Assembly: GCA_017415775.1 (NCBI GenBank)
Contig: JAFQFC010000029.1
Coordinates: 1 to 43,348 of the forward strand
DNA: 43,348 bases
Direction: 5' to 3'
Source: Oscillospiraceae bacterium
GTDB lineage: Bacteria > Bacillota > Clostridia > Oscillospirales > Oscillospiraceae
The position numbers and the translations under genes were made by a program. Within the stretch, counting starts at the first letter, position 1, and each line of letters begins with the position of its first letter. This document shows positions 5,608 through 31,698 of the stretch, piece after piece. Below the pieces are notes generated by a model. The model worked only from the letters and a program-made list of their open reading frames with translations. It searched no databases and was not told the DNA's origin.

Positions 5608-6114
5608 ATGAGCAACATCAAAAACGAAGCCAAAATCCGCAATCCCCTCATTGTGGCCATTCGTGAGCAGCTGGAGCACCGGGCCCTGTGGATGTACCTG
5701 CTGTGCGACGAGGCCGCCAAAAAAGGCCTGGCACCCCAGGACTATGCTCCTGCGGCCATCCGCCGCTGCGGATTGTATCAGGGCGGCAATCTTCGCACCA
5801 AGGCCGGCGGCGGCGATTCCCTGAAGGGCCTGAAAAAAACGCTTTTCACCAAGCCCGCCCAGTGGGTCTTCGAGATGGACGTGCAGCGCTGTGACGATGA
5901 CCATCTGGACATCGACTTCCACTACTGCCCGCTGGTAAAGGCATGGCAGAAGCAGGGCTGCAGCGACGAGGAGATCCAACTGCTGTGCGATCACGCCATG
6001 TGCGGTGACCGGGGCATCGCCGAAAGCTTCGGCTGTGAGCTGGACCTGCCCGCCACCATCGCCCGGGGCGATGATGTCTGCAAGATCCGTTTTGTCCGCC
6101 GCGAAAAGAAATAA
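5608..6114 (+). CDS. L-2-amino-thiazoline-4-carboxylic acid hydrolase family protein
   Basis: A 168-residue protein of the ATC-hydrolase family (PF14196), named for hydrolysis of 2-aminothiazoline-4-carboxylate to S-carbamoyl-cysteine. Most gut members are uncharacterised, so the substrate is uncertain. The diagnostic C-terminal half is present: DFHYCPLVKAWQKQGCSDEE, LLCDHAMCGDRGIAESF and ARGDDVCKIRF, with conserved cysteines and acidic residues. The start at 5608 is preferred because AAAGGAG lies ten bases upstream; the earlier in-frame ATG at 5575 falls inside the -10 box. It stands alone between a GntR-like operator and a strong terminator. The operator links it to the amino-sugar/amino-acid island on its right. 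Confidence 0.85.
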   Translation: MSNIKNEAKIRNPLIVAIREQLEHRALWMYLLCDEAAKKGLAPQDYAPAAIRRCGLYQGGNLRTKAGGGDSLKGLKKTLFTKPAQWVFEMDVQRCDDDHLDIDFHYCPLVKAWQKQGCSDEEIQLLCDHAMCGDRGIAESFGCELDLPATIARGDDVCKIRFVRREKK

Positions 6115-6128
6115 TCCCAATCCCACAC

Positions 6129-6168
6129 ACAGGAGCCGAAGGCGCATGCCTTCGGCCCCTGTTCTTTT
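6129..6168 (+). terminator. Rho-independent terminator
   Basis: A 15-bp stem with one mismatch (6129-6143 with 6148-6162, loop GCAT) is followed by TCTTTTC. It ends the single-gene ATC-hydrolase transcript. Confidence 0.8.
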
Positions 6169-6198
6169 CTTATGAAAGTACCAATACAGCGGTCCCCC

Positions 6199-6242
6199 TT
6201 GCATTCCGCCCCCAATAAGGCTATAATGTTTTTATACCAATT
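6199..6242 (+). promoter_or_regulatory. Promoter and operator of the GntR pair
   Basis: TTGCAT (6199-6204), a 17-bp spacer and TATAAT (6222-6227) form a near-consensus vegetative promoter. TTTATACCAATT (6231-6242) covers the expected transcription start. Its reverse complement begins with AATTGGTATAA, identical to the elements at 7714-7724 and 7862-7872. This position suggests autorepression by one or both GntR proteins. Confidence 0.7.
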
Positions 6243-6258
6243 CAGGAGATGGTCTGCT

Positions 6259-6993
6259 ATGAAGCTCTATACGCCCCGCCCCCGGGAGCTGGCACAGGAA
6301 CACATTAAAGCCTACATACTGGAACACGATCTCAAGCCTCACGACCGCCTCCCCGCCGAGCGGGAGATGTGCGCCATGTGGGGATTTAATCGCTGCACGC
6401 TGCGCAGCGCCATCGCCGGTATGATCGCCTCCGGGCAGCTGTACGCCGTACAAGGCAGCGGCACCCGTGTGGCACCCCGGTTCCGCCGGACGCTGCAGGA
6501 TCTGCAGGGCTTCACCGAATATGCTGCCGACTGCGGCTTCCGTGCAGAGACACGACTGCTGTCTTTCTCGGTGACGGAGTGCGACAAGCACCTGTCCCGC
6601 CGGTTCCGCCGCTGCCTCGGCGAGAAGCTGTACCGCATCTCCCGCCTGCGTATGCTCAACGAAACGCCGGTGCTGATTGAGACCTCCTATATCCCTGTGG
6701 AACTGGCGCCCGGACTGGAGGAACACGATCTGGTACGCGGTTCCCTCTTTGCCGTATTGGAGGACGTTTACGGTCTGGCACTGGATCACGGCGAAGAGAC
6801 CACCAGTATCACCTCCGCCACGGAGGAGGAGGCCGCCCATCTGGGTATTGAACCCGGTACACCGGTGTTCTGGATCGTCAGCCGCACCGACACCCCCGAC
6901 GGCACAACCGTGGAGTACTGCCGCACTGTGGGGCGGGCCGATGTTGTGGAAATGGCCAGCGTATTGCGATGGACGGAAGGAGAGATCGAATGA
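6259..6993 (+). CDS. GntR/HutC family transcriptional regulator (first)
   Basis: A 244-residue regulator. The N-terminal winged helix (about 1-75) shows DRLPAEREMCAMWGFNRCTLR and ends in the wing GQLYAVQGSGTRVA. The C-terminal UTRA ligand-binding domain (about 90-240) includes YRISRLRMLNETPVLIE and VEYCRTVGRADVVE. HutC-type proteins usually bind sugar phosphates or amino-acid derivatives; fructoselysine 6-phosphate or a related Amadori compound is the reasonable guess from context. The start at 6259 is set by CAGGAG upstream; an earlier ATG at 6172 would lie upstream of the promoter. The stop overlaps the start of the second GntR gene (ATGA), so the two are translationally coupled and could act together. 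Confidence 0.9.
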   Translation: MKLYTPRPRELAQEHIKAYILEHDLKPHDRLPAEREMCAMWGFNRCTLRSAIAGMIASGQLYAVQGSGTRVAPRFRRTLQDLQGFTEYAADCGFRAETRLLSFSVTECDKHLSRRFRRCLGEKLYRISRLRMLNETPVLIETSYIPVELAPGLEEHDLVRGSLFAVLEDVYGLALDHGEETTSITSATEEEAAHLGIEPGTPVFWIVSRTDTPDGTTVEYCRTVGRADVVEMASVLRWTEGEIE

Positions 6994-7715
6994 GCGAAAT
7001 TACATATAAATCCCCCCTGTACATCCAACTGCGTGAAGTGATCCGCAGCAAAATTGAGGAGGGCGAATATCCTCCCGGCACCGCCATCCCCTCGGAAAAC
7101 CAGCTGGCGGAGATGTATGGCATCAACCGTCTGTCGGTTCGCAGCGCCGTGGCAGCGCTGGAATACGAGGGCCTTTTAAAGAGCGTACAGGGCAAGGGTG
7201 TTTTTGTCACCGGCCCCAAGCTGGAACGGGATTTGGAAACACTGGGCGGCTATCGCCAGACTATGCGGCAGCGAGCCCGCACGCCCTCCACCCGCGTTCT
7301 GATCAAGGCCGCCCGGCAGGCCGGCCCCTACTATGCCCGAATTCTGCAAATCGATCCCACCGATCACATCTGGTTCATCCGCCGGGTAGATTATGCCGAC
7401 GGCGAACCGGTGGGTCTGGAGGATATCTACATTCCCATGTCCGTACTTCCCAATCTGGATGAGATCGATATCAACCTCTTCTCTATCTTTGACGCCTATG
7501 ACTGGGCCGGAATCCGCCCCAGCGTAGGTTACCAGACACTGCGCATCGCCTGTCTGGATGTGGCTACCGCCAAGCTCATTGGTCTGTCGGAAGAACAGGC
7601 GGTTCTGGAGTTCTCCTGCGTTACCCACGACGCTGACGGTAAAGTCATTGAATTCTCACGAAATTACGTGCGCAACGACAAGGCGAAGTTCTCCGTTCAT
7701 TATACAAATCAATAA
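6990..7715 (+). CDS. GntR/HutC family transcriptional regulator (second, FrlR-like)
   Basis: A 241-residue GntR/HutC regulator that is only a distant paralogue of the preceding one. The winged helix has GTAIPSENQLAEMYGINRLS, RSAVAALEYEGLLKSVQGKG and FVTGP; the UTRA domain follows with IWFIRRVDYADGEPVGLEDIYIP and EFSRNYVRNDKAKFSVHY at the end. The start at 6990 overlaps the previous stop and has GGAAGGAG upstream. Two tandem regulators of the same class next to one transporter/catabolic operon may mean two effectors (for example fructoselysine and glucoselysine phosphates) or a heteromeric repressor. Which gene corresponds to E. coli frlR cannot be settled by eye. Confidence 0.9.
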   Translation: MSEITYKSPLYIQLREVIRSKIEEGEYPPGTAIPSENQLAEMYGINRLSVRSAVAALEYEGLLKSVQGKGVFVTGPKLERDLETLGGYRQTMRQRARTPSTRVLIKAARQAGPYYARILQIDPTDHIWFIRRVDYADGEPVGLEDIYIPMSVLPNLDEIDINLFSIFDAYDWAGIRPSVGYQTLRIACLDVATAKLIGLSEEQAVLEFSCVTHDADGKVIEFSRNYVRNDKAKFSVHYTNQ

Positions 7716-23067: not shown

Positions 23068-23826
23068 ATGCTCATCGAAATTCAACACGCCTCACTGACC
23101 TATCAGGCCGACGACGGCGAGGTGGAAGCCCTGCGGGACATTTCTCTGGAAATGGAGGAGGGGGAGCTGTGCAGCATCGTGGGTCCCTCCGGCTGCGGCA
23201 AATCCACGCTGCTGGGCGCCATCGCCGGGTTGGAGCGGCTGGACGGCGGCTCCATCACGCTGGACGGCGAACCGGTCACCGGCCCCTCTCCCCGCATCGG
23301 GCTGATGCCCCAGCGCGACCAGCTGTTTGAATGGCGCACCATTCTGGACAACGTGATGCTGGGCCTGCAGGTGCGGCGGCAGGATACGCCGGAAAACCGC
23401 ACCCGGATCCTGACGCTGCTGGAGCGCTACGGTCTCAAAGATTTTGCCCATAAGCGGCCCGCCCAGCTCTCCGGCGGCATGCGCCAGCGCTGCGCTCTGA
23501 TCCACACGCTGGCCTTTGATCCCCGGATCCTGCTGCTGGATGAGCCGTTCTCCGCACTGGACTACCAGACACGGCTGGCAGTATCCGCCGATATCCACGC
23601 CATTTTGCGCCGCGAGCAGCTCACCGCCCTGCTGGTGACCCACGACATCGCCGAGGCCGTCAGCATGTCCGACCGCATCTTCATCCTCTCCCGCCGTCCG
23701 GCGGTGGTCAAGAAAGTCCATGACCTCACAGAGCTGTCGGGGTTGACGCCGCTGCAGCGCCGGGATCACCCATCGTTCCACACCCACTTCAACGCCGTCT
23801 GGAAGGAGGTCGATCTCCATGTCTGA
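23068..23826 (+). CDS. ABC transporter ATP-binding protein (SsuB/TauB/ThiZ type)
   Basis: A 252-residue ATPase of the nitrate/sulfonate/taurine/HMP group. It has Walker A VGPSGCGKSTLLGAIAGLE (about 38-56), Q-loop LMPQRDQLFEWRTI, signature LSGGMRQRCALIHTLAF, Walker B ILLLDEPFSALD and the switch VTHDIAEAVSMSDRI. It would power the permease that overlaps it by eight bases. AAGGAGG lies upstream of the ATG. Substrate cannot be fixed from the ATPase; the family imports small anionic or aromatic compounds. Confidence 0.9.
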   Translation: MLIEIQHASLTYQADDGEVEALRDISLEMEEGELCSIVGPSGCGKSTLLGAIAGLERLDGGSITLDGEPVTGPSPRIGLMPQRDQLFEWRTILDNVMLGLQVRRQDTPENRTRILTLLERYGLKDFAHKRPAQLSGGMRQRCALIHTLAFDPRILLLDEPFSALDYQTRLAVSADIHAILRREQLTALLVTHDIAEAVSMSDRIFILSRRPAVVKKVHDLTELSGLTPLQRRDHPSFHTHFNAVWKEVDLHV

Positions 23827-24634
23827 ACAAAGCACGCCTTCGCCTGCCCGCCTTTTGTGGCTGCAGCGGCAGAAAAAGCGCCGCCGCACCATCCGCCTGT
23901 GGCAGATCTCTCTGCTGGTGGGCCTGTTTGGCCTGTGGGAGCTGACCACGGCGCTGGGCCTCAGCGACGGTTTCCTCATTTCCAGCCCCAGCCGCATGGC
24001 CGCCACCTTCTGGAATCTGTGCCGCAGCGGCGAAGTGCTGGTCCACGTGGGCGTCTCCTGCCTGGAAACAGTCGCCGGTTTTCTGGCCGGCACGCTGCTG
24101 GGCACAGCCGTGGCCGTGGCTATGTGGTGGTCCGATTCGCTGGCCCGGGTGTTGGATCCCTATCTGGTGGTCCTCAACGCCCTGCCCAAAACGGCGCTGG
24201 GCCCCATCTTCATCGTTTGGATGGGCGCCGGCATGGGTTCCATCATCGCCATGACGCTGGCCATCTCGCTGATCGTCACCATATTGAATATGTACATGGG
24301 TTTTCTTTCCACCGACAGCGAGAAGCTGCGCCTGATGCGCTCGCTGGGCGCCACCCGGGGCCAGATCCTGCGCCTGCTGGTCTTCCCCTCCAATTATCCC
24401 ACGCTGTTCAACACCTTGAAGGTCAATGTTGGTCTTTCGTGGGTAGGCGTCATCATGGGGGAATTTCTCGTCTCCCGGGCCGGGCTGGGCTACCTGATCG
24501 TCTACGGCTCGCAGGTGTTCAACATGGATCTTGTGATGACCAGCGTGCTGATCCTGGCGCTGGCCGCCGTGATCATGTACCGTCTGGTGTTGGGTGCGGA
24601 AAAAATATTGCATCATTTTTGGGGGTTATCATGA
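23819..24634 (+). CDS. ABC transporter permease (SsuC/TauC type)
   Basis: A 271-residue membrane permease with about six helices. It starts with a basic cytosolic segment (LQRQKKRRRTIRLW) before the first helix. The EAA-type coupling loop is LMRSLGATRGQILRLLVFP (about 170-188), and LPKTALGPIFIVWMGAG is typical of sulfonate/nitrate-type permeases. Its start overlaps the ATPase gene and its stop overlaps the start of the binding-protein gene, so the three are tightly coupled. Confidence 0.9.
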   Translation: MSEQSTPSPARLLWLQRQKKRRRTIRLWQISLLVGLFGLWELTTALGLSDGFLISSPSRMAATFWNLCRSGEVLVHVGVSCLETVAGFLAGTLLGTAVAVAMWWSDSLARVLDPYLVVLNALPKTALGPIFIVWMGAGMGSIIAMTLAISLIVTILNMYMGFLSTDSEKLRLMRSLGATRGQILRLLVFPSNYPTLFNTLKVNVGLSWVGVIMGEFLVSRAGLGYLIVYGSQVFNMDLVMTSVLILALAAVIMYRLVLGAEKILHHFWGLS

Positions 24635-25629
24635 AAAAACGAATCTTTTGCTGCTTATCCGCCCTGTTGCTGCTGTGTACCGCCCTGTGCGGCTGCAGCA
24701 AAACCGAAACCCTGACCACTGTCCGGGTCAACGAAGTCACCCACTCCGTCTTTTATGCGCCCCAGTATGTGGCCATGAGTCTGGGCTTCTTCGAAGAAGA
24801 GGGCCTGCAGGTGGAGCTGACCAACGGCGGCGGCGCCGACAAGGTAATGACCGCCGTGGTATCCGGTCAGTCGGACATCGGGCTGGCCGGCCCGGAAAGC
24901 TGCATCTATGTCTACAATCAGGGCAAGGAGGACTATCCCGTCATCTTCGCCCAGCTCACCAAGCGGGACGGCTCTTTCCTGGTGGGCCGCACCGACGAGG
25001 ACTTCTCCTGGGAAAACCTGCGGGGCAAGACCATCATCGGCGGCCGTAAGGGCGGCGTGCCGGAGATGACGCTGGAATACGTCATGGCGCAAAACGGCGT
25101 CACGCCCCATGTGGACGCCGTGGTGGATACTTCGGTGCAGTTCAACATGATGGCCGGCGCTTTTACCGGCGGCCAGGGGGACTATGTGGCCCTCTTTGAA
25201 CCCACCGCCACCGAAGTGGTGGAGGCCGGCAAGGGCTACATCCTCTGCTCCATCGGCGAGGAGAGCGGTGAGATCCCCTATACCGCCTACTTTGCCAGCC
25301 AGAGCTATATGGCCGAAAACCCGGCAGTGGTGCAGGGTTTCACCAACGCCATCGCCCGTGCCCAGCGCTGGATCGCCCAGCACTCCGACCGGGAGGTGGC
25401 CGAAGCCATGGCCGCCCAGTTCCCCGACACCTCGGTGGATCTGCTGGAAAAAGTCACCGCCCGCCACCGGGCCATTGACGCATGGAACAGCACGCCCGTT
25501 ATGGAACAGGCGGCGCTGGAGCGTCTGGAGACGGTGATGGAGCACGCCGGAGAATTGAGCCGGGAACAGTGGGTGGACTTTGACGAACTGGTGGATAATT
25601 CCTTCGCTGAAACGGCAGCCAACCAATAA
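24631..25629 (+). CDS. ABC transporter substrate-binding lipoprotein (NMT1/SsuA-like)
   Basis: A 332-residue lipoprotein with signal peptide and lipobox LCGC (Cys about 23). The mature part shows the NMT1/THI5/SsuA fold: VTHSVFYAPQYVAMSLGFFEE, the glycine-rich NGGGADKVMTAVVSGQSDIG, GLAGPESCIYVYNQG and LRGKTIIGGRKGGVPEMTLE. The ATG at 24631 overlaps the permease stop (ATGA); a longer open frame running in from 23857 is only a shadow of the permease gene. Candidate ligands are thiamine pyrimidine precursors, sulfonates or similar small molecules. The gene ends inside a perfect terminator stem. Confidence 0.9.
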   Translation: MKKRIFCCLSALLLLCTALCGCSKTETLTTVRVNEVTHSVFYAPQYVAMSLGFFEEEGLQVELTNGGGADKVMTAVVSGQSDIGLAGPESCIYVYNQGKEDYPVIFAQLTKRDGSFLVGRTDEDFSWENLRGKTIIGGRKGGVPEMTLEYVMAQNGVTPHVDAVVDTSVQFNMMAGAFTGGQGDYVALFEPTATEVVEAGKGYILCSIGEESGEIPYTAYFASQSYMAENPAVVQGFTNAIARAQRWIAQHSDREVAEAMAAQFPDTSVDLLEKVTARHRAIDAWNSTPVMEQAALERLETVMEHAGELSREQWVDFDELVDNSFAETAANQ

Positions 25630-25670
25630 AAAAGAGGTGCTTTCGCACCTCTTTTTTATTGGTTTTTTAC
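25621..25670. terminator. Bidirectional terminator
   Basis: A perfect 20-bp stem (25621-25640 with 25645-25664, loop TTTC), with the ABC operon stop codon inside the left arm, followed by TTTTTT. It separates converging transcripts. Confidence 0.93.
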
Positions 25671-27370
25671 TTGAATGCCGGCATCAGGCTTCTGTACTTC
25701 TGGATGCTGGACGCTGCATTCCACGTCATGTAGCCGCCGGTGTTGCCGGTATCCTCCAGAGCCTTGATCTGGGCAGCCACCTGATCGGGGCCGTAGTAGG
25801 TGTAAGGCTCGTGGATGGCATTGTAGGCCTGGATCCAGGTGCGGACTGCCGCCGGAGTGGGGGCTTCCTTCTGCCGGCGGGCAGCGCCGCCGCCAAAGAT
25901 GGACATGATGTCATACGGATGCTCCCAGGGCAGCCAGTCACCGCTGGCACCGTAGTGGTCGGGATAGGGCATGGCGGAAATGGCATCCACCACGTTGGTC
26001 ATGGCGGGCCAGTACTGACCGTAGGAACACACGTAGTCCATGGATGTCTCGCCAAACACGTCGGCGCTGATGTACGCACCGGCAGCATGGATGCGGTCAG
26101 CGGCGTACATCAAAAACCGCTGCACAGCCTGGGCCTTGCTCTCGCCGTAGGTGTTGCGGTAGTCGATGGTCTTGGCATCGTAGTACCAGGTGCCGTCGGG
26201 GAAGCGGACATAGTCGAACTGGATCTCGTTGAAGCCCATCAGCTCCACCGCCTCCAGCGCCAGATCCACCTTGTACTGCCAGACATAGCGGTTATAGGCG
26301 CTGGGCCAGTACATGCCCACGATCTTCATAGGCTTGTCGGTACCGCTCTTGACGATCAGGCACTCAGGATGATCGGTGGCAAAGTAGGGATCGTTGAAGG
26401 TGGTAATGCGGCCGATCACATAGTAGCCGGCATCCTTGATCTTCTGCACCGCCTCTTTGTACTTTTCCAGCGAGTTGGTGGCCCGCTTGTAGGCAGAGGG
26501 CGAATACTTCTCCATGGTAGGGGAGGCGTAGGCAATGGCCTCACCATCCTGAATGTCGATAACGAAAGCGTTGATGCCGCAGCCGTCGGCGATCTTGATG
26601 TACTCATCCACGCTTCCCACGAAGGCGTGGTTCAGGTACAGGGCCTTCACCTTCTCGGGCATCACATTGTCGGCAAACACAGGCTTCTCCCGGGGCTCGT
26701 AGTCCAGGCCGCCGGCGTCACCGCCGCCCCAGCTGTCACCCCGCTTGGCATGCAGCTGGTACAGCGCCTCGTCATGCACCGCAGCGGCCTCCGCCTGCTC
26801 GCGGCACAGATAACCGGCCGTCACATAGCCCTCGGCACCGTCCGCCGTGCGGACCTGATAGCGTGCCACCACGCCCTGCTCGTCCAGTCCCTCGTAACCG
26901 ATCACCTGCAGTTCGTCACCCTTTTGGGCCAGAGCGCCGCAGGTAGCGCCGTCCTGCGCCAGCAGATTCATGGTGGTGCGCAGATACAGCTTCTCCGTCT
27001 GCACCACCTTGGACAGCTCGTCGGTCACACGCTGGGCATCGATCCACGCAAAGTCCGCCTTCTTCTCGAACACCTCGCCGTTTTCCTCGCCGCCCATCAC
27101 CAGCCGGATCTGGCCGGGATGCTCTTCATGGGCCTCTTCCACCACATAGGTCACGGCAGTGCCGCGGACCAGTTCACCGCTCTGCGCACCTGCATCGTCG
27201 TAAATGGGGGCGGTCTCCAAATCGGCCGCCACAAAGCCCGTGGCCGTCACCAGCGGACGGGGCCACAGCAAAAAGGCTGTTACGCCGGCTGCCGCCAGCA
27301 CCAGCACGCAGGCCAGCACCCACGGCCACACTCTTCTCTTCCGCACGGAAGTCTCTTTCATCGTTTCCAT
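25667..27370 (-). CDS. DUF4015 putative glycoside hydrolase, membrane-anchored
   Basis: A 567-residue protein. A basic N-terminus and one hydrophobic helix (about 15-36) anchor it outside the membrane. Residues 40-215 look like two SH3-like modules (ATGFVAADLETAPIYDDAG; EKLYLRTTMNLLAQDG; EGYVTAGYLC). The C-terminal 320 residues are the DUF4015/GH13-like barrel (PF13200), with VKALYLNHAFVGSVDEYIKI, AFVIDIQDGEAIAY, the typical EIQFDYVRFPDGT and SADVFGETSMDYV. The carbohydrate substrate is unknown; SH3-like repeats suggest the cell wall. The start at 27370 follows GAGGTG. It lies divergent from the dockerin gene. Confidence 0.87.
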   Translation of the reverse strand: METMKETSVRKRRVWPWVLACVLVLAAAGVTAFLLWPRPLVTATGFVAADLETAPIYDDAGAQSGELVRGTAVTYVVEEAHEEHPGQIRLVMGGEENGEVFEKKADFAWIDAQRVTDELSKVVQTEKLYLRTTMNLLAQDGATCGALAQKGDELQVIGYEGLDEQGVVARYQVRTADGAEGYVTAGYLCREQAEAAAVHDEALYQLHAKRGDSWGGGDAGGLDYEPREKPVFADNVMPEKVKALYLNHAFVGSVDEYIKIADGCGINAFVIDIQDGEAIAYASPTMEKYSPSAYKRATNSLEKYKEAVQKIKDAGYYVIGRITTFNDPYFATDHPECLIVKSGTDKPMKIVGMYWPSAYNRYVWQYKVDLALEAVELMGFNEIQFDYVRFPDGTWYYDAKTIDYRNTYGESKAQAVQRFLMYAADRIHAAGAYISADVFGETSMDYVCSYGQYWPAMTNVVDAISAMPYPDHYGASGDWLPWEHPYDIMSIFGGGAARRQKEAPTPAAVRTWIQAYNAIHEPYTYYGPDQVAAQIKALEDTGNTGGYMTWNAASSIQKYRSLMPAFK

Positions 27371-27493: not shown

Positions 27494-27522
27494 TGGACAA
27501 TGTGCACATCTCATGCTATACT
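27494..27522 (+). promoter_or_regulatory. Promoter of the dockerin-cohesin operon
   Basis: TGGACA (27494-27499), a 17-bp spacer and TATACT (27517-27522), 54 bp upstream of the dockerin gene start. A good vegetative promoter. The rest of 27371-27575 holds no gene. Confidence 0.65.
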
Positions 27523-27575: not shown

Positions 27576-29972
27576 ATGAAAAGAAACCGCAACAAGCTCC
27601 GAAGATTCGCCTGCCTGCTGCTGTCAGCCGTCATGGTGCTGGGACTGCTGCCCGCTCCCGCTGCCGCCACAGCCGCTGACGATCTGGAATACGAGCTGCT
27701 GGGCGAGCTGTCCTCCCGCTACGAGGGCGGCAACGCCGGCGCCATCGTCAATAACGCCGGCGACATCGGCGGCAAGTCCTACGGCGCCTATCAGTTTGCC
27801 AGCGCCAGCGGCGTACCCATGACCTTTGCCCGCTGGTGTATGGCGTCGGATAACGAATACTACCGCTACATCGGCGAAACGCTGGACGCGGCCTATCACA
27901 AGGGCGGTGCCGGCTACGGCGCCAACTTCGACGCCGCATGGAAGGCGTTGGCCGAAGAGAACTACGACGGCTTTTTCGCCTGCCAGCGCTACTACGTCAA
28001 TGACCACTACTACCACGGTGTGGTGGACGCCGTCACGGAGGACGTCCCCGGCTTTGATATCCACAACTACAGCATCGCTCTGCGCAACGTCTTCCTCTCC
28101 CGCGCCGTCCAGCACGGCATCGGCGGCGGCTATAACGTGATCGTCCGGGCCTTCAACGCATTGGGCGGCTTTGCCAACCAGCCGGAGACCGACCTGATCG
28201 CCGCCATCTACGCCGAGAGCAGCAAGACCCGTCCCGCCGAACCCGGCGAAAATGCCATGACCGGCGTCAACGCCCAGAAATACGGCGTGGAAGGCCAGGT
28301 CATGAGCTACTACACCGGCAGCTCCTCCAGCATCCAGCTGGGCGTTTTCCTGCGCCTGCGGATCAACGAACCGGCTCAGGCCCAGAATATGCTGGTGACC
28401 TACGGCTACATTGATGCCATTCTGGACGAAGGCGTCTACCGTTTCTCCCCCGCCGACAACGCCAGTCTGGCCATGGGCAGCAAGGAAAGCGGCGTATGGC
28501 TGAATGCAATGGATGACTCCGAGGCCCAGCAATTCCGCCTGACCTTCTTTGCCAGCGGATACTACACCATCGAAAGTGTCTCCACCGGCCTGCGCCTGAC
28601 GGCACAGGGCGACGGCAGCGTAACACTGGCAGCCCCCTGCGCAGATAACAGCCAGCTGTGGAAGGCGGAAAACGTGAACAGCGGTTTCTCCCTCTGCAAC
28701 CGGGAAACCGGCCTGTACCTTACCGCCGCCGCTGCCGGCAGCGCTGTCAGTACCGGCGAAACCGTCTCCCAGTGGCAGCTGACCAAATCCGGTGCCGACT
28801 GGTCGCTGGACAGCGCCAATTATCCCACCTACGCCAATATCCTGCTGGAAGGCAGCTCCAACTTCCCCCTCCGCGGCATGCTGCGCTGCACCTTCCCCAT
28901 CCAGACGGTGAAGGTTTCCGTGCTGAACGCAGCCGGCGCCAACGCATTCACTCCCGCCTCCGCCTCCAACATCAACGAAACCACCTATAGCCTGAGCAAT
29001 CTGGACAGCAAGGTCAGTTTCAGCAAGCTGAAGGCAGGCAGCTACAAGCTGATCATCGAGGCTACCGCCGCAGAGACGGACAGCAAATTCTATCTGGAAT
29101 CCAACTTCTTCGTGTCCGACGGCACCCATATCCTCACCTTCGATCCCGGCGAGGGCACCGTGGGCGAGACCGCCCGCAATCTGGCCGCCGGCCAGAAGTA
29201 CGGCACCCTGCCCGTCCCCGTGCGGGAAGGCTACATCTTCACCGGCTGGTTCACCGAGCCTGAGGGCGGCGAACAGGTCACCGCCGACACCATTGCCGGC
29301 GCCGAAAACAAGACCGTTTATGCCCGGTACGAAAAGGCCTTCACCTACCGCTTTGTCAACTATGACGGCGCGCAGATCTCCAGCGGCGCCTTGCTGCCCG
29401 GTTCTGTGATCCCCGCCCCGGAGAAAGACCCTGTCCGTCCTGCGGAAAGCAGCTTTTTCTACACCTTCACCGGCTGGGAGGGCTATACCGAGGGCATGAC
29501 CATTTCCGCCGACGTGACCTTCACGGCCCAGTATGAGCAGCACGAGCTGACCGCTCCGCCGGAGATCACCACCGACGCCTACACCATCCGTGACGGCTAT
29601 CTGCGCACCATTGCGCTGAACACCGCACTGTCCGATCTGCAGCAGAAGCTGCAGCCCGCCGAGTTCATCACCATCGGTAAGGGCAGCGCCACCGCCGAGG
29701 GCGTGGCCGCCACCGGCATGACCGTGACCTACGCCGTCAATGGCGAGACCGTCCAGACGCTGACCCTGGTGGTCACCGGCGACGTGAACGGCGACGGTCA
29801 GTGTACCATCGCCGATCTGGTGCTCATTAACATGCATCTGCTGGGCCGCAGTTCTCTGAAGGGCGCAGCCGCAGCTGCCGGTGACGTCAACGCCGACGGC
29901 TCCGTGTCCATTGCCGACCTGGTGCTCATCAATATGCAGCTGCTGGGCCGCTCCAACCTGACCCCCAACTAA
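27576..29972 (+). CDS. Secreted lysozyme-like protein with C-terminal type I dockerin
   Basis: A 798-residue exported protein. In order: signal peptide (1-33), a lysozyme/chitosanase-like domain (about 38-280) with LSSRYEGG and NAGDIGGKSYGAYQF, where Glu50 is a candidate catalytic acid, a ricin-type beta-trefoil-like part (about 287-402), a beta-sandwich linker, two InlB B-type repeats (about 519-586 and 588-653, FTGWFTEPEGG and FTGWEGYTEG) and a C-terminal dockerin (735-793). The dockerin holds two calcium loops, DVNGDGQCTIAD and DVNADGSVSIAD, each followed by LVLINM(H/Q)LLGRS, nearly identical. It should bind a cohesin and be held on the cell surface. The next gene encodes one. GGTGATC ahead of the ATG is a weak ribosome site. 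Confidence 0.9.
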   Translation: MKRNRNKLRRFACLLLSAVMVLGLLPAPAAATAADDLEYELLGELSSRYEGGNAGAIVNNAGDIGGKSYGAYQFASASGVPMTFARWCMASDNEYYRYIGETLDAAYHKGGAGYGANFDAAWKALAEENYDGFFACQRYYVNDHYYHGVVDAVTEDVPGFDIHNYSIALRNVFLSRAVQHGIGGGYNVIVRAFNALGGFANQPETDLIAAIYAESSKTRPAEPGENAMTGVNAQKYGVEGQVMSYYTGSSSSIQLGVFLRLRINEPAQAQNMLVTYGYIDAILDEGVYRFSPADNASLAMGSKESGVWLNAMDDSEAQQFRLTFFASGYYTIESVSTGLRLTAQGDGSVTLAAPCADNSQLWKAENVNSGFSLCNRETGLYLTAAAAGSAVSTGETVSQWQLTKSGADWSLDSANYPTYANILLEGSSNFPLRGMLRCTFPIQTVKVSVLNAAGANAFTPASASNINETTYSLSNLDSKVSFSKLKAGSYKLIIEATAAETDSKFYLESNFFVSDGTHILTFDPGEGTVGETARNLAAGQKYGTLPVPVREGYIFTGWFTEPEGGEQVTADTIAGAENKTVYARYEKAFTYRFVNYDGAQISSGALLPGSVIPAPEKDPVRPAESSFFYTFTGWEGYTEGMTISADVTFTAQYEQHELTAPPEITTDAYTIRDGYLRTIALNTALSDLQQKLQPAEFITIGKGSATAEGVAATGMTVTYAVNGETVQTLTLVVTGDVNGDGQCTIADLVLINMHLLGRSSLKGAAAAAGDVNADGSVSIADLVLINMQLLGRSNLTPN

Positions 29973-29984
29973 GAAAGGGCTTTG

Positions 29985-31658
29985 ATGGCTATGAAAAAAA
30001 TCCGCATTTCTTTTCTCCATGCGCTGCTGGTGCTGGCGCTGGTCCTCTCCCTGATCCCCACTGCCGCCTTTGCCGCCGGCGCCTCGCTGAAATCCAGCAA
30101 GTCCACCCTGCGTGCCGGCGATTCCTTTACCCTGACCTACAGCGTCAACGGCACGGATGTACAGGGCCTGCAGTTCTCCCTCAAGTATGACAGCACCAAT
30201 CTGACCTATTCCGGCCACAAATTCAAAATCAGCGGTTGGAGCAGCAGCGCCAACGGCACCAACTTTACCACTTACGACGGCTCCGGCTCCGGCTTTACCG
30301 GCACCAAGGCCATCGTCGCCTTCACCTTTAAGGTCAAAAGCGGCGTGGCCACCGGCACCGGCCTGTCCGCCTCCGTCTCCTGCACCGGCACCAACTCCGC
30401 CGGCAGCTCCATGTCCCTCAGCGCTTCCTGGAGCGGCAAGGTAGCCGCCCCCCTGTCCGGCGACGCAACGCTGAAGGCTCTCAGCTGCTCCAATGCCTCC
30501 ATTAACTTCACCGGCAACAGCGAGTACCGTGTCACGGTCCCTTACGAGGTCAGTTCCCTGAAGCTGAGCGCCACCCCCAACCACAGCGGCGCCAAGGTGT
30601 CCGTCTCCGGCAATAAGCTGGGCGTGGGCTCCAACACCGTCACCATCACCGTTACGGCAGAGAACGGCGCCACCAAGCGCTATTACATCTACGCCACCCG
30701 TGAGCAGGACCCCAACTATGTTCCCAGCAGCGACGCTGCCATTTCCGCTCTGTCCCCCTCTTCCGGCCGACTGAGCCCCGCATTCCAGGCCGATATTACC
30801 GATTACGTCCTCTATCTCCCTTACGAGGTCACCGAGCTGACCTTCAATGCCACCGCCAATGACAGCAAGGCCCGTGGCGTCAGCCAGCTGCGGGAGATCC
30901 TGTCGGTAGTCGAAGAGCTGCCTCAGGACGAGGCCGCCGATAACGCCGCCAGCGAGCCTGCTGCTCCCGACACCGGGACCGAAGAGCCCGCCGAGCCTGT
31001 CTACACCGTCCTGCCCGACGGTGAGCCTCTGCCCGAGGGCGAGACTCGCTACACCGTCACCTGCACCGCCGAGGACGGCACCACCACCAAGGACTATGTG
31101 ATCCATGTGATCCGCATGCCTCAGTACGAAGGCGTGCTGCCCGAGATCATCGCTCCCATCACCGAGCCTGTGGAGCCGGAGCCGGAACCCGAACCCACCA
31201 CCTATGATATCTCCCTGCCTCTGGTGCTGACGCTGCCCTATGTGGGCGAAGTCACGCTGCAGCAGGCAGCGCAGGGCGCCGTGATCGCTCTGGGTGTGCT
31301 GCTGCTCCTGCTGCTGCTGATCGCATGGCTCATCGGCCGCCGGGGCGGTCGCCGCAAGGCCATGCGCAAGATGGCCAAGCAGGCCGCTGCCGCAGCTGCC
31401 GCCGAAACCGCCGCACCTGTGGAAGAGGTGGTCGCCGCCACCGTTCTGGCCGAGGATGCGCCTGCGCAGGAGGCTCCCTCCGCCGAAGAAGAACCCACGG
31501 AAGAGGTCCCCGCCGAAGAGCCCGCTCCCGACGAAGAGCCTGCTCCTGCAGAAGAGTCTGCCGAAGCCGGGGAAGCGCCCGCAGAAACGGAAGCCGCTCC
31601 CACAGAAGAGCCCGCCATGTCTCTGGATGACATTCTGGACGACATCCGTAAAATGTAA
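29985..31658 (+). CDS. Membrane-anchored cohesin protein with long cytosolic tail
   Basis: A 557-residue protein. In order: signal peptide (1-30, ending AAFA), a type I-like cohesin (about 33-155, SLKSSKSTLRAGDSFTLTYS, VQGLQFSLKYDSTNLTYSG, KAIVAFTFKVKSG), two cadherin-like beta-sandwich modules (about 160-240 and 250-378, the second interrupted by an acidic insert), a Pro/Glu stalk (EPVEPEPEPEP), one transmembrane helix (about 431-449) with a basic stop-transfer GRRGGRRKAMRK, then a roughly 105-residue Ala/Glu/Pro cytosolic tail ending SLDDILDDIRKM. The start at 29985 uses AAAGGG upstream; a TTG at 29982 is less likely. It lies 12 bp after the dockerin gene, so the pair is co-transcribed and probably interacts. 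Confidence 0.88.
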   Translation: MAMKKIRISFLHALLVLALVLSLIPTAAFAAGASLKSSKSTLRAGDSFTLTYSVNGTDVQGLQFSLKYDSTNLTYSGHKFKISGWSSSANGTNFTTYDGSGSGFTGTKAIVAFTFKVKSGVATGTGLSASVSCTGTNSAGSSMSLSASWSGKVAAPLSGDATLKALSCSNASINFTGNSEYRVTVPYEVSSLKLSATPNHSGAKVSVSGNKLGVGSNTVTITVTAENGATKRYYIYATREQDPNYVPSSDAAISALSPSSGRLSPAFQADITDYVLYLPYEVTELTFNATANDSKARGVSQLREILSVVEELPQDEAADNAASEPAAPDTGTEEPAEPVYTVLPDGEPLPEGETRYTVTCTAEDGTTTKDYVIHVIRMPQYEGVLPEIIAPITEPVEPEPEPEPTTYDISLPLVLTLPYVGEVTLQQAAQGAVIALGVLLLLLLLIAWLIGRRGGRRKAMRKMAKQAAAAAAAETAAPVEEVVAATVLAEDAPAQEAPSAEEEPTEEVPAEEPAPDEEPAPAEESAEAGEAPAETEAAPTEEPAMSLDDILDDIRKM

Positions 31659-31660
31659 CA

Positions 31661-31698
31661 AAAAATGACCTGTTCTCAAAAGAACAGGTCATTTTTCT
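31661..31698. terminator. Bidirectional terminator
   Basis: A perfect 16-bp stem (31661-31676 with 31681-31696, loop CAAA) with A-run and T-run flanks, between the cohesin gene and converging truA. Confidence 0.92.

What the first reader, a model, noticed from the sequence alone, without database searches (positions are those of the whole stretch)
27576..31658. Adjacent dockerin enzyme and membrane cohesin: a minimal cellulosome-like pair for cell-wall work
One gene encodes a secreted lysozyme-like protein with beta-trefoil, InlB repeats and a textbook two-loop dockerin. The next, 12 bp on, encodes a single-cohesin protein with its own transmembrane anchor. Cellulosomes use multi-cohesin scaffoldins and plant-polysaccharide enzymes; here the cargo looks peptidoglycan- or chitin-directed and the complex would be 1:1 at the cell surface. 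The two dockerin loops are almost identical, which permits binding in two orientations.
Basis: partly seen in the sequence, partly recalled or inferred. Interest (0 to 1): 0.85.

Follow-up and report, generated by a model that had tools for sequence, protein, structure and literature searches.

The report
Cohesin-tethered cell-wall muramidase gene pair
A gut bacterium makes a secreted, probably cell-wall-cutting enzyme with a molecular plug and, from the next gene, a membrane protein with the matching kind of socket; its close relatives nearly always keep such a pair together, so a coupling known from plant-fibre digestion seems to be used here to hold a wall enzyme on the cell surface.

Summary
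Gene A (27576-29972) encodes a signal peptide, VgrG3-like muramidase domain, ricin-type trefoil, InlB-type repeat and dockerin; gene B (29985-31658) a signal peptide, one cohesin, cadherin-like domains, a transmembrane helix and a 107-residue acidic tail. Pfam finds no other dockerin or cohesin in this genome (about 76% complete). Dockerin and cohesin diverge in step after correcting for neighbouring genes; dockerin and cadherin do not. Not in the finding: (1) the receptor ends inside the cell in a conserved peptide (MSLDDLLxDIRNM type), in 28 of 28 intact receptors of this pair; two other membrane cohesins read in the genus lack it. (2) Two genomes (G009, G019) carry a GH73 glucosaminidase instead of the muramidase, G019 at the same chromosomal place. 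(3) The near-symmetric dockerin marks the window's branch, not the genus. Most likely this is a membrane receptor for wall hydrolases.

The parts
27494..27522 (+). promoter-like site, extended -10 type (TGGACA-17-TATACT), 53 bp before gene A
   Evidence: 10 of 12 matches; consensus match only
27576..29972 (+). gene A: secreted muramidase-dockerin protein, 798 aa
27576..27668 (+). signal peptide of A (by eye)
   Evidence: basic N-terminus, hydrophobic core, A-x-A (sequence)
27699..28229 (+). VgrG3-like muramidase domain (PF21277); E50 and D63 are the candidate catalytic pair
   Evidence: E50 and D63 identical in 23 of 23 orthologues; aligned to E and D of 4noo
28524..28775 (+). ricin-type beta-trefoil
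29133..29324 (+). Flg_new / InlB-type repeat (a second, weaker one may follow to about 29543, by eye)
29778..29945 (+). type I dockerin with two calcium-loop repeats
29985..31658 (+). gene B: membrane cohesin receptor, 557 aa
29985..30077 (+). signal peptide of B (by eye)
   Evidence: sequence; ends A-F-A-A, with A-A kept in orthologues
30099..30395 (+). cohesin domain
30450..31139 (+). cadherin-like beta-sandwich region
   Evidence: PF12733, 3 stretches
31278..31334 (+). transmembrane helix, followed by basic residues
   Evidence: mean hydropathy 3.17
31335..31655 (+). acidic, low-complexity tail of 107 aa, inferred cytosolic
   Evidence: net charge -18
31617..31655 (+). conserved C-terminal peptide MSLDDILDDIRKM
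31660..31697 (.). 17-pair hairpin (5 G-C pairs) between B and the convergent truA, possible terminator
   Evidence: scored on the minus strand; 4 terminator-like sites found, 3.7 expected

Best explanation
Genes A and B form a two-gene unit. A is exported and probably cuts peptidoglycan glycan strands with a VgrG3-type muramidase domain, helped by a trefoil and InlB-type repeat that may hold wall or surface glycans. Its C-terminal dockerin plugs into the single cohesin of B, giving a 1:1, calcium-dependent complex on the outer face of the cell membrane. B is a single-pass membrane receptor: cohesin and cadherin-like domains outside, one helix, and a flexible acidic tail inside whose last 13 residues are a conserved docking peptide. 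The unit most likely serves remodelling of the cell's own wall, with the tail placing or regulating the tethered hydrolase through a cytosolic partner that is not yet known. Shown by sequence: domains, order, conservation, the tail peptide, enzyme exchange in relatives, co-divergence of dockerin and cohesin. Inferred: binding, calcium dependence, muramidase activity, own-wall substrate, tail orientation and tail partner.
For: Domains over cut-off. A dockerin gene directly before the cohesin gene in 26 of 26 genomes of the genus with a B orthologue (window plus 25 of 31 others), and in three more with divergent pairs (G009, G017, G019), so 29 of 32. Partial Mantel over 21 genomes, correcting for two neighbouring transporter genes: dockerin-cohesin r 0.42 (p 0.0005), dockerin-cadherin r 0.08 (p 0.20); also correcting for muramidase and cadherin domains r 0.41 (p 0.0005). 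E50 and D63 kept in 23 of 23. Cargo exchange: the dockerin proteins of G009 and G019, and of several other lineages, carry a GH73 glucosaminidase domain of the autolysin type. In G019 that pair directly follows the orthologue of the window's transporter gene SBP (73% identity, the only match in that genome; gene order). Tail peptide in 28 of 28 intact receptors of this pair; in 8 genomes no other protein matches it at E below 0.8.
Against: No binding, activity or structure data; the fold and complex prediction could not be run. Dockerin-muramidase (r 0.28) and muramidase-cohesin (r 0.26) also show residual co-divergence, and Mantel tests do not fully remove shared ancestry. The cohesins of G009, G017 and G019 are not seen by Pfam, only by a profile of the 26 orthologues (E 8e-5, 4e-7, 3e-8), and the second dockerin repeat of those three has lost its loop residues. 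Some relatives carry up to 8 dockerins, and G015 and G028 have a second membrane cohesin without the tail peptide (L065, L066), so B need not be A's only partner there. Three of 32 genomes lack this pair, so it is dispensable. Own-wall use is inferred; no wall-synthesis or division gene is fixed next to the pair in the genes compared. The basic stretch after the helix is missing in several orthologues. The muramidase match to solved VgrG3 is modest at single-sequence level (E 4e-4). In other lineages related receptors stand beside a subtilase or a large Big_2/CBM protein, so the receptor type is not restricted to wall enzymes.
Confidence: 0.66

Rival explanations
1. Displayed weapon or feeding enzyme: the cohesin holds a bacteriolytic muramidase on the surface to lyse neighbouring or dead bacteria, not to remodel the own wall.
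For: The catalytic family is best known from an antibacterial type VI effector that degrades peptidoglycan (PMC9927483, passages). Trefoil and InlB-type repeat could bind foreign surfaces.
Against: The scanned neighbours (ABC genes, DUF4015, truA, nitroreductase, LysE, ROK) show no immunity-type family, though no dedicated search for one was made. The receptor has a conserved, inferred cytosolic end peptide, which a passive display anchor would not need. The alternative cargo is an autolysin-type GH73.
Confidence: 0.2
2. General surface socket: B serves several dockerin proteins and A is only one client, as proposed for the lone cohesin of R. albus.
For: Eight of 32 genomes of the genus carry 4 to 8 dockerins, some in open frames above 1000 aa. 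A single cohesin anchoring isolated enzymes is proposed for R. albus (PMC6118326, passage).
Against: Only one dockerin by Pfam in the window genome and in near-complete G004, G016, G031. A dockerin gene is the adjacent gene in 26 of 26 genomes with a B orthologue.
Confidence: 0.12
3. Operon neighbours that do not bind each other: each domain has other partners.
For: No interaction was measured; the cohesin score is modest (29 bits).
Against: Adjacency in 29 of 32 genomes and the dockerin-specific co-divergence. In the window genome there is no other detected dockerin or cohesin to pair with, though about a quarter of that genome is missing.
Confidence: 0.05

Closest known systems
Cellulosome, and mucinolysome of Limousia (PMC12997984, passages)
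   Same: Dockerin on a secreted glycosidase, cohesin on a surface protein; the mucinolysome shows that the coupling is not limited to plant fibre.
   Different: Those use multi-cohesin scaffoldins and many dockerin enzymes (the mucinolysome anchor cSca5 has an LPxTG signal). Here one cohesin, one dockerin, a membrane helix and a wall-type glycosidase.
Pairwise cohesin-dockerin enzymes of Clostridium perfringens (described in PMC12997984, passages; original paper not seen)
   Same: One cohesin meets one dockerin, no scaffoldin, non-plant glycans.
   Different: There all five cohesin proteins also have a glycoside hydrolase domain; here the cohesin sits on a membrane receptor with no catalytic domain found and a tail.
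Single-cohesin proteins with a C-terminal transmembrane helix (H. luporum, C. cibarium, Lachnoclostridium sp. MSJ-17; PMC11557425, passages) and the lone R. albus cohesin (PMC6118326, PMC4081043, passages)
   Same: One cohesin, in the former with a membrane helix.
   Different: For H. luporum and C. cibarium the partners are stated to remain unclear; in R. albus strains 7 and SY3 dozens of dockerins face one cohesin protein that itself carries a dockerin. Here the likely partner is the adjacent gene.
SagB-SpdC hydrolase complex of Staphylococcus aureus (PMC12272431, passages; chains 6fxp and 6u0o, whose identity as SagB is recalled)
   Same: A peptidoglycan glycosidase working with a membrane protein; the alternative cargo in relatives is homologous to it.
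   Different: SpdC is described as an integral membrane protein of the CAAX protease family, with no cohesin or dockerin mentioned; the window's own enzyme is of a muramidase family, not GH73.
VgrG3 C-terminal muramidase (PF21277; PMC9927483, passages)
   Same: Same domain family; an E and a D position conserved.
   Different: No spike and no type VI context seen here; secreted by a signal peptide; relatives are Oscillospiraceae.

Membership tests
Cellulosome | scaffoldin with two or more cohesins | tested here: not met
   one cohesin in B and, by Pfam, in the genome; genome 75.66% complete
Cellulosome | plant-polysaccharide enzymes on dockerins | tested here: not met
   the only dockerin protein found is A, VgrG3-like muramidase family
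Type I dockerin | two calcium-loop repeats, profile over cut-off | tested here: met
Cohesin | profile over cut-off | tested here: met
   29.2 bits against 24.1; 25 of 32 genomes of the genus have a match over cut-off
Cohesin | jelly-roll fold and calcium-dependent dockerin binding | not testable with these tools
   structure prediction switched off
VgrG3-type muramidase (PF21277) | profile over cut-off | tested here: met
   88 bits against 27
VgrG3-type muramidase (PF21277) | conserved acidic pair | tested here: met
   E50 and D63 in 23 of 23, aligned to E and D of 4noo; the numbers E827/D842 for VgrG3 are recalled; the site matching D867 of PMC9927483 was not located
VgrG3-type muramidase (PF21277) | cuts peptidoglycan | not testable with these tools
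   needs an assay
C. perfringens-type pairwise system | cohesin carried by a glycoside hydrolase | tested here: not met
   no catalytic domain found in B
GH73 glucosaminidase, for the relatives' cargo | profile match to solved GH73 enzymes and a conserved Glu | tested here: met
   E 2e-29 to 2e-22; one Glu invariant in 12 of 12; single-sequence Pfam matches in only 2 of 12

The most novel reading that the evidence does not exclude
The cohesin protein is a transmembrane adaptor that couples a cytosolic machine, through a dedicated C-terminal peptide, to an exchangeable wall glycosidase outside (muramidase in most species of the genus, glucosaminidase in a few), so that the plug-and-socket of the cellulosome has become a control link for the cell's own wall growth or division.
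Probability: 0.33. Interest if true: 0.82.

Novelty: new variant of a known kind. Interest (0 to 1): 0.64.

Why it matters
Dockerins and cohesins are usually read as signs of plant-fibre digestion; a published grouping of Clostridiales has four classes (neither module; few dockerins and no cohesin; many of both; many dockerins and few cohesins; PMC6118326, passage), and one dockerin beside one cohesin is none of them. A genus of gut Oscillospiraceae in which 29 of 32 genomes keep an adjacent dockerin protein and membrane cohesin, with interchangeable wall enzymes and its own end peptide, points to a different use for the coupling. It also gives single-cohesin membrane proteins, whose partners were called unclear for two species (PMC11557425, passages), a testable rule: look at the gene just before. 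If the tail binds a cytosolic partner, it would be a new way to steer a wall hydrolase across the membrane.

Tried and rejected
Structure and complex prediction: an alignment was built in which the window's natural stop codon was read as Q so that dockerin and cohesin form one chain, with 47 further rows from 27 relatives' loci, six of them joined the same way.

Tail peptide shared with MltG: a borderline hit of the tail profile (G191, E 0.017) is a YceG/MltG protein with a similar peptide near its N-terminus. YceG hits were found in 31 of 32 genomes of the genus. A first script read about a third of the 30 fetched loci on the right strand; repeated with both strands, 30 of 30 gave the protein and none has the tail peptide in its first 110 residues, while 23 of 30 have another short motif (about T-x-x-[WY]-[DNF]-x-x-x-V-R). 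One of the 30 is a fragment without the N-terminus (L227), and at least three start too far upstream (L212, L220, L226). Rejected for the genus. Of the other three non-genus hits, two lie inside other frames and one (L118) was not resolved.

Phage or mobile origin: no relative of B among viral contigs (113 pattern matches, none confirmed). The two PHROG hits of A rest on the muramidase domain only. That the G009/G017/G019 receptors are plain orthologues: their ectodomains form a separate deep clade (midpoint root, long branches), so whether B diverged in place or was replaced as a pair is open.

Look outside the genus: 67 genomes of other genera in the order were searched with a receptor profile: 17 have a hit at E up to 1e-10, many to cadherin-like parts only. 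In the 30 loci read, a dockerin ORF directly precedes a cohesin- or cadherin-type membrane ORF in G073, G074 (two places), G052 and G095; in G052 and the second G074 place my profile sees the cadherin part but not the cohesin. Separately, of 44 loci read, 29 show a cohesin: 16 of these have a dockerin ORF directly upstream and 13 do not; 14 more match without a cohesin. That set was found with this genus's proteins, holds five cohesin loci of the genus itself (L063, L065, L097, L098 with, L066 without), and the profile was trained partly on L052, L059, L063 and L066.
Full report
What is there. Gene A (27576-29972) and gene B (29985-31658) lie on the plus strand, 12 bp apart, with a promoter-like site before A and a 17-pair hairpin after B; terminator-like sites as a class are no commoner here than in shuffles (4 against 3.7). 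A carries a signal peptide (by eye), PF21277 (VgrG3-like C-terminal domain, 88 bits against a cut-off of 27), a ricin-type trefoil, a Flg_new/InlB-type repeat and a type I dockerin. B carries a signal peptide (by eye), one cohesin (29.2 bits against 24.1), cadherin-like domains, one transmembrane helix at 432-450 followed by basic residues, and a 107-residue acidic tail. A profile of 19 cohesins (window and 18 relatives) hits chain A of the solved entries 5nrm and 5nrk (E 5e-4), while B alone hits no solved chain. A's dockerin hits chain B of the same entries. That these entries are cohesin-dockerin complexes is recalled; the table names chain B a type I dockerin and chain A an endoglucanase.

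Inventory. The window lies in an assembly of 1.76 Mb, 75.66% complete, with one dockerin and one cohesin by Pfam. In the genus (32 genomes), 31 have a dockerin and 26 a Pfam-detectable cohesin; the curated model misses some that the B protein itself finds (G014, G018, G023, G024). G004, G016 and G031, at least 92% complete, have exactly one of each by Pfam. Eight genomes have 4 to 8 dockerins, and G015 and G028 have a second membrane cohesin (L065, L066), so the strict one-to-one inventory is not universal. Named relatives of the locus are Oscillospiraceae and other Clostridia assemblies, many from rumen, colon or faeces, among them Firmicutes bacterium CAG:176.

Conservation as a unit. B finds orthologues in 25 of 31 other genomes of the genus. 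In 26 of 26 (window included) the gene directly before is a dockerin gene on the same strand, with gaps of about -4 to 27 bp for likely start codons; the mechanical start gives -46 in L048. In 23 of these 26 the dockerin protein is read far enough to show the muramidase domain; in the other three (G001, G012, G020) a contig end cuts it, and for G001 the missing front lies at the edge of another contig. G009, G017 and G019 carry divergent dockerin-cohesin pairs. Their cohesins are not seen by Pfam; a profile made from the 26 orthologues alone finds them at E 8e-5, 4e-7 and 3e-8. That makes 29 of 32. G008 and G030 lack such a pair. G013 has another arrangement: a 515-aa protein with a dockerin near its N-terminus, followed at once by a 1496-aa frame in which Pfam finds a cohesin; it is not counted. 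G030 has the muramidase with about six DUF4214 domains in place of the dockerin. Among the 99 genomes (62 genera) searched, PF21277 occurs in this genus only (25 genomes). Neighbourhood: the transporter gene called SBP lies near the pair in 21 of 26 loci L033-L058, and truA in 18 of 26; contig ends explain some gaps, and one of the 26 loci (L052) is from another family.

Do the two domains belong together? For the 21 genomes where all six segments could be read, distance matrices were compared after correcting for two neighbouring transporter genes. Dockerin against cohesin: partial r 0.42, p 0.0005. Dockerin against the cadherin part of the same B protein: 0.08, p 0.20. Muramidase against cohesin: 0.26, p 0.02. 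Dockerin against muramidase, the same polypeptide: 0.28, p 0.002. Cohesin against cadherin, the same polypeptide: 0.48, p 0.0005. With muramidase and cadherin also corrected for, dockerin-cohesin stays at 0.41, p 0.0005. This is what partners would show. It is not proof: shared ancestry is only partly removed.

Dual binding. Positions 10, 11, 17 and 18 of the two dockerin repeats (the numbering of recognition sites is recalled; PMC4081043 uses the same four for R. albus, passage) are the same in both repeats in 5 of 27 orthologues: the window, G028, G016, G010 and G073. In the rest the repeats have drifted apart. So the symmetric dockerin belongs mainly to the window's own branch.

The tail. 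After a variable, acidic linker, all 25 in-genus orthologues that reach their C-terminus (G018 is cut by a contig end) finish in a peptide of the type MSLDDLLxDIRNM, with an extended variant in G025; the stretch after the helix is 75-200 residues long in these. The three divergent receptors end in LPLDELLxDI(R/H)DL. Two other membrane cohesins read in the genus, L065 of G015 and L066 of G028, lack the peptide. A profile of it finds the receptor as the only hit below E 0.8 in each of seven genomes, and nothing below 0.9 in G008, which lacks the pair. In 400 genomes of the family it finds nine genus members at E below 1e-5, and four hits elsewhere at 0.003-0.03 that are not receptor tails as far as read. 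The peptide thus follows the genus and this one receptor, across ectodomains that fall in separate deep clades. A short conserved end on a flexible linker is typical of a docking peptide; that reading, the cytosolic side and the partner are inference.

Cargo exchange. The dockerin proteins of the G009 and G019 pairs, and of several other lineages, carry in place of the muramidase a domain that matches solved glucosaminidases (6fxp, 6u0o, bifunctional autolysin 6fxo, autolysin E 4pi7, N-acetylglucosaminidase 5wqw; E 2e-29 to 2e-22) as a profile of 12 sequences. The G017 protein is cut by its contig end, so its catalytic part was not seen. Only 2 of the 12 match Pfam's Glucosaminidase alone, so the profile is needed, and one of the 12 (L064) has no dockerin. 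In G019 the pair follows, about 240 bp on, the orthologue of the window's SBP gene (73% identity, the only match in that genome), with regulator genes of the same families downstream, so the place is the same. In G009 and G017 the SBP orthologue is on another contig than the pair. Other lineages put a subtilase (L141) or a large Big_2/CBM protein (L146) on the dockerin, and G015's second pair a GDSL hydrolase (L065; its dockerin is just below cut-off), so the receptor type as a whole is not restricted to wall enzymes. In G044 a related glucosaminidase has choline-binding repeats instead of a dockerin beside a cohesin-type protein. In L060, L161 and L163 my profile does not see the cohesin of the neighbouring receptor.

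Interpretation. The simplest reading is a membrane socket for a wall glycosidase. Two unrelated enzyme families that attack the peptidoglycan glycan strand appear on the same kind of pair within one genus, which favours a wall role over chitin or plant fibre. A parallel exists in S. aureus, where the glucosaminidase SagB works with the membrane protein SpdC to release nascent strands (PMC12272431, passages). Whether the target is the own wall or other bacteria is not decided by sequence. The lack of an immunity-type family among the scanned neighbours and the conserved end peptide favour the own wall.

Compared with what is known. Pairwise cohesin-dockerin complexes without a scaffoldin are known from C. 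perfringens, where cohesins sit on glycoside hydrolases (PMC12997984, passages). Single-cohesin proteins with a membrane helix have been listed, with partners unclear for two species (PMC11557425, passages). A lone surface cohesin has been proposed for R. albus (PMC6118326 and PMC4081043, passages). I found no report of an adjacent muramidase- or glucosaminidase-dockerin and membrane-cohesin pair in the listings (open-access library only) or in the passages read; most listed papers were not opened. Subscription papers, including a 2009 survey of non-cellulosomal modules that I recall, were not readable. Verdict: real, conserved, a new variant of a known coupling, with the end peptide as the most surprising part.

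Noticed in passing
window 23068-25629: ABC transporter (ATPase, permease, NMT1/THI5-type binding protein) upstream of the pair; the binding-protein gene is near the pair in 21 of 26 orthologous loci and directly before the glucosaminidase pair of G019.
   Followed up: partly
window 25667-27370 (-): Divergent DUF4015 putative glycosyl hydrolase with a weak SH3_3 match, found near the pair in 10 of 26 orthologous loci.
   Followed up: partly
window 27624-31679 (-): A 1351-aa open frame antisense to both genes; taken to be a high-GC shadow ORF.
   Followed up: no
L196:1674-4613: G030 carries the muramidase-trefoil-InlB protein with about six DUF4214 domains instead of a dockerin.
   Followed up: partly
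L064:4373-7231: G044 has a glucosaminidase with choline-binding repeats in the place of a dockerin, next to a cohesin/cadherin-type protein.
   Followed up: partly
L198-L226: YceG/MltG proteins of the genus share a short motif (about T-x-x-[WY]-[DNF]-x-x-x-V-R) in the inferred cytosolic N-terminal tail, matched by the pattern in 23 of 30 loci: another possible docking peptide on a wall enzyme.
   Followed up: partly
L099:7339-13255: G013: a protein with a dockerin near its N-terminus directly before a 1496-aa frame with a Pfam cohesin, a different adjacent pair.
   Followed up: partly
L065:1984-6849: G015 has a second dockerin-cohesin pair, with a GDSL hydrolase on the dockerin (the dockerin match is just below the curated cut-off).
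   Followed up: no
L145:4966-5880 and 5890-7146: A small cohesin-dockerin protein encoded directly before a membrane cohesin, suggesting a two-step chain in another Clostridia genome.
   Followed up: no
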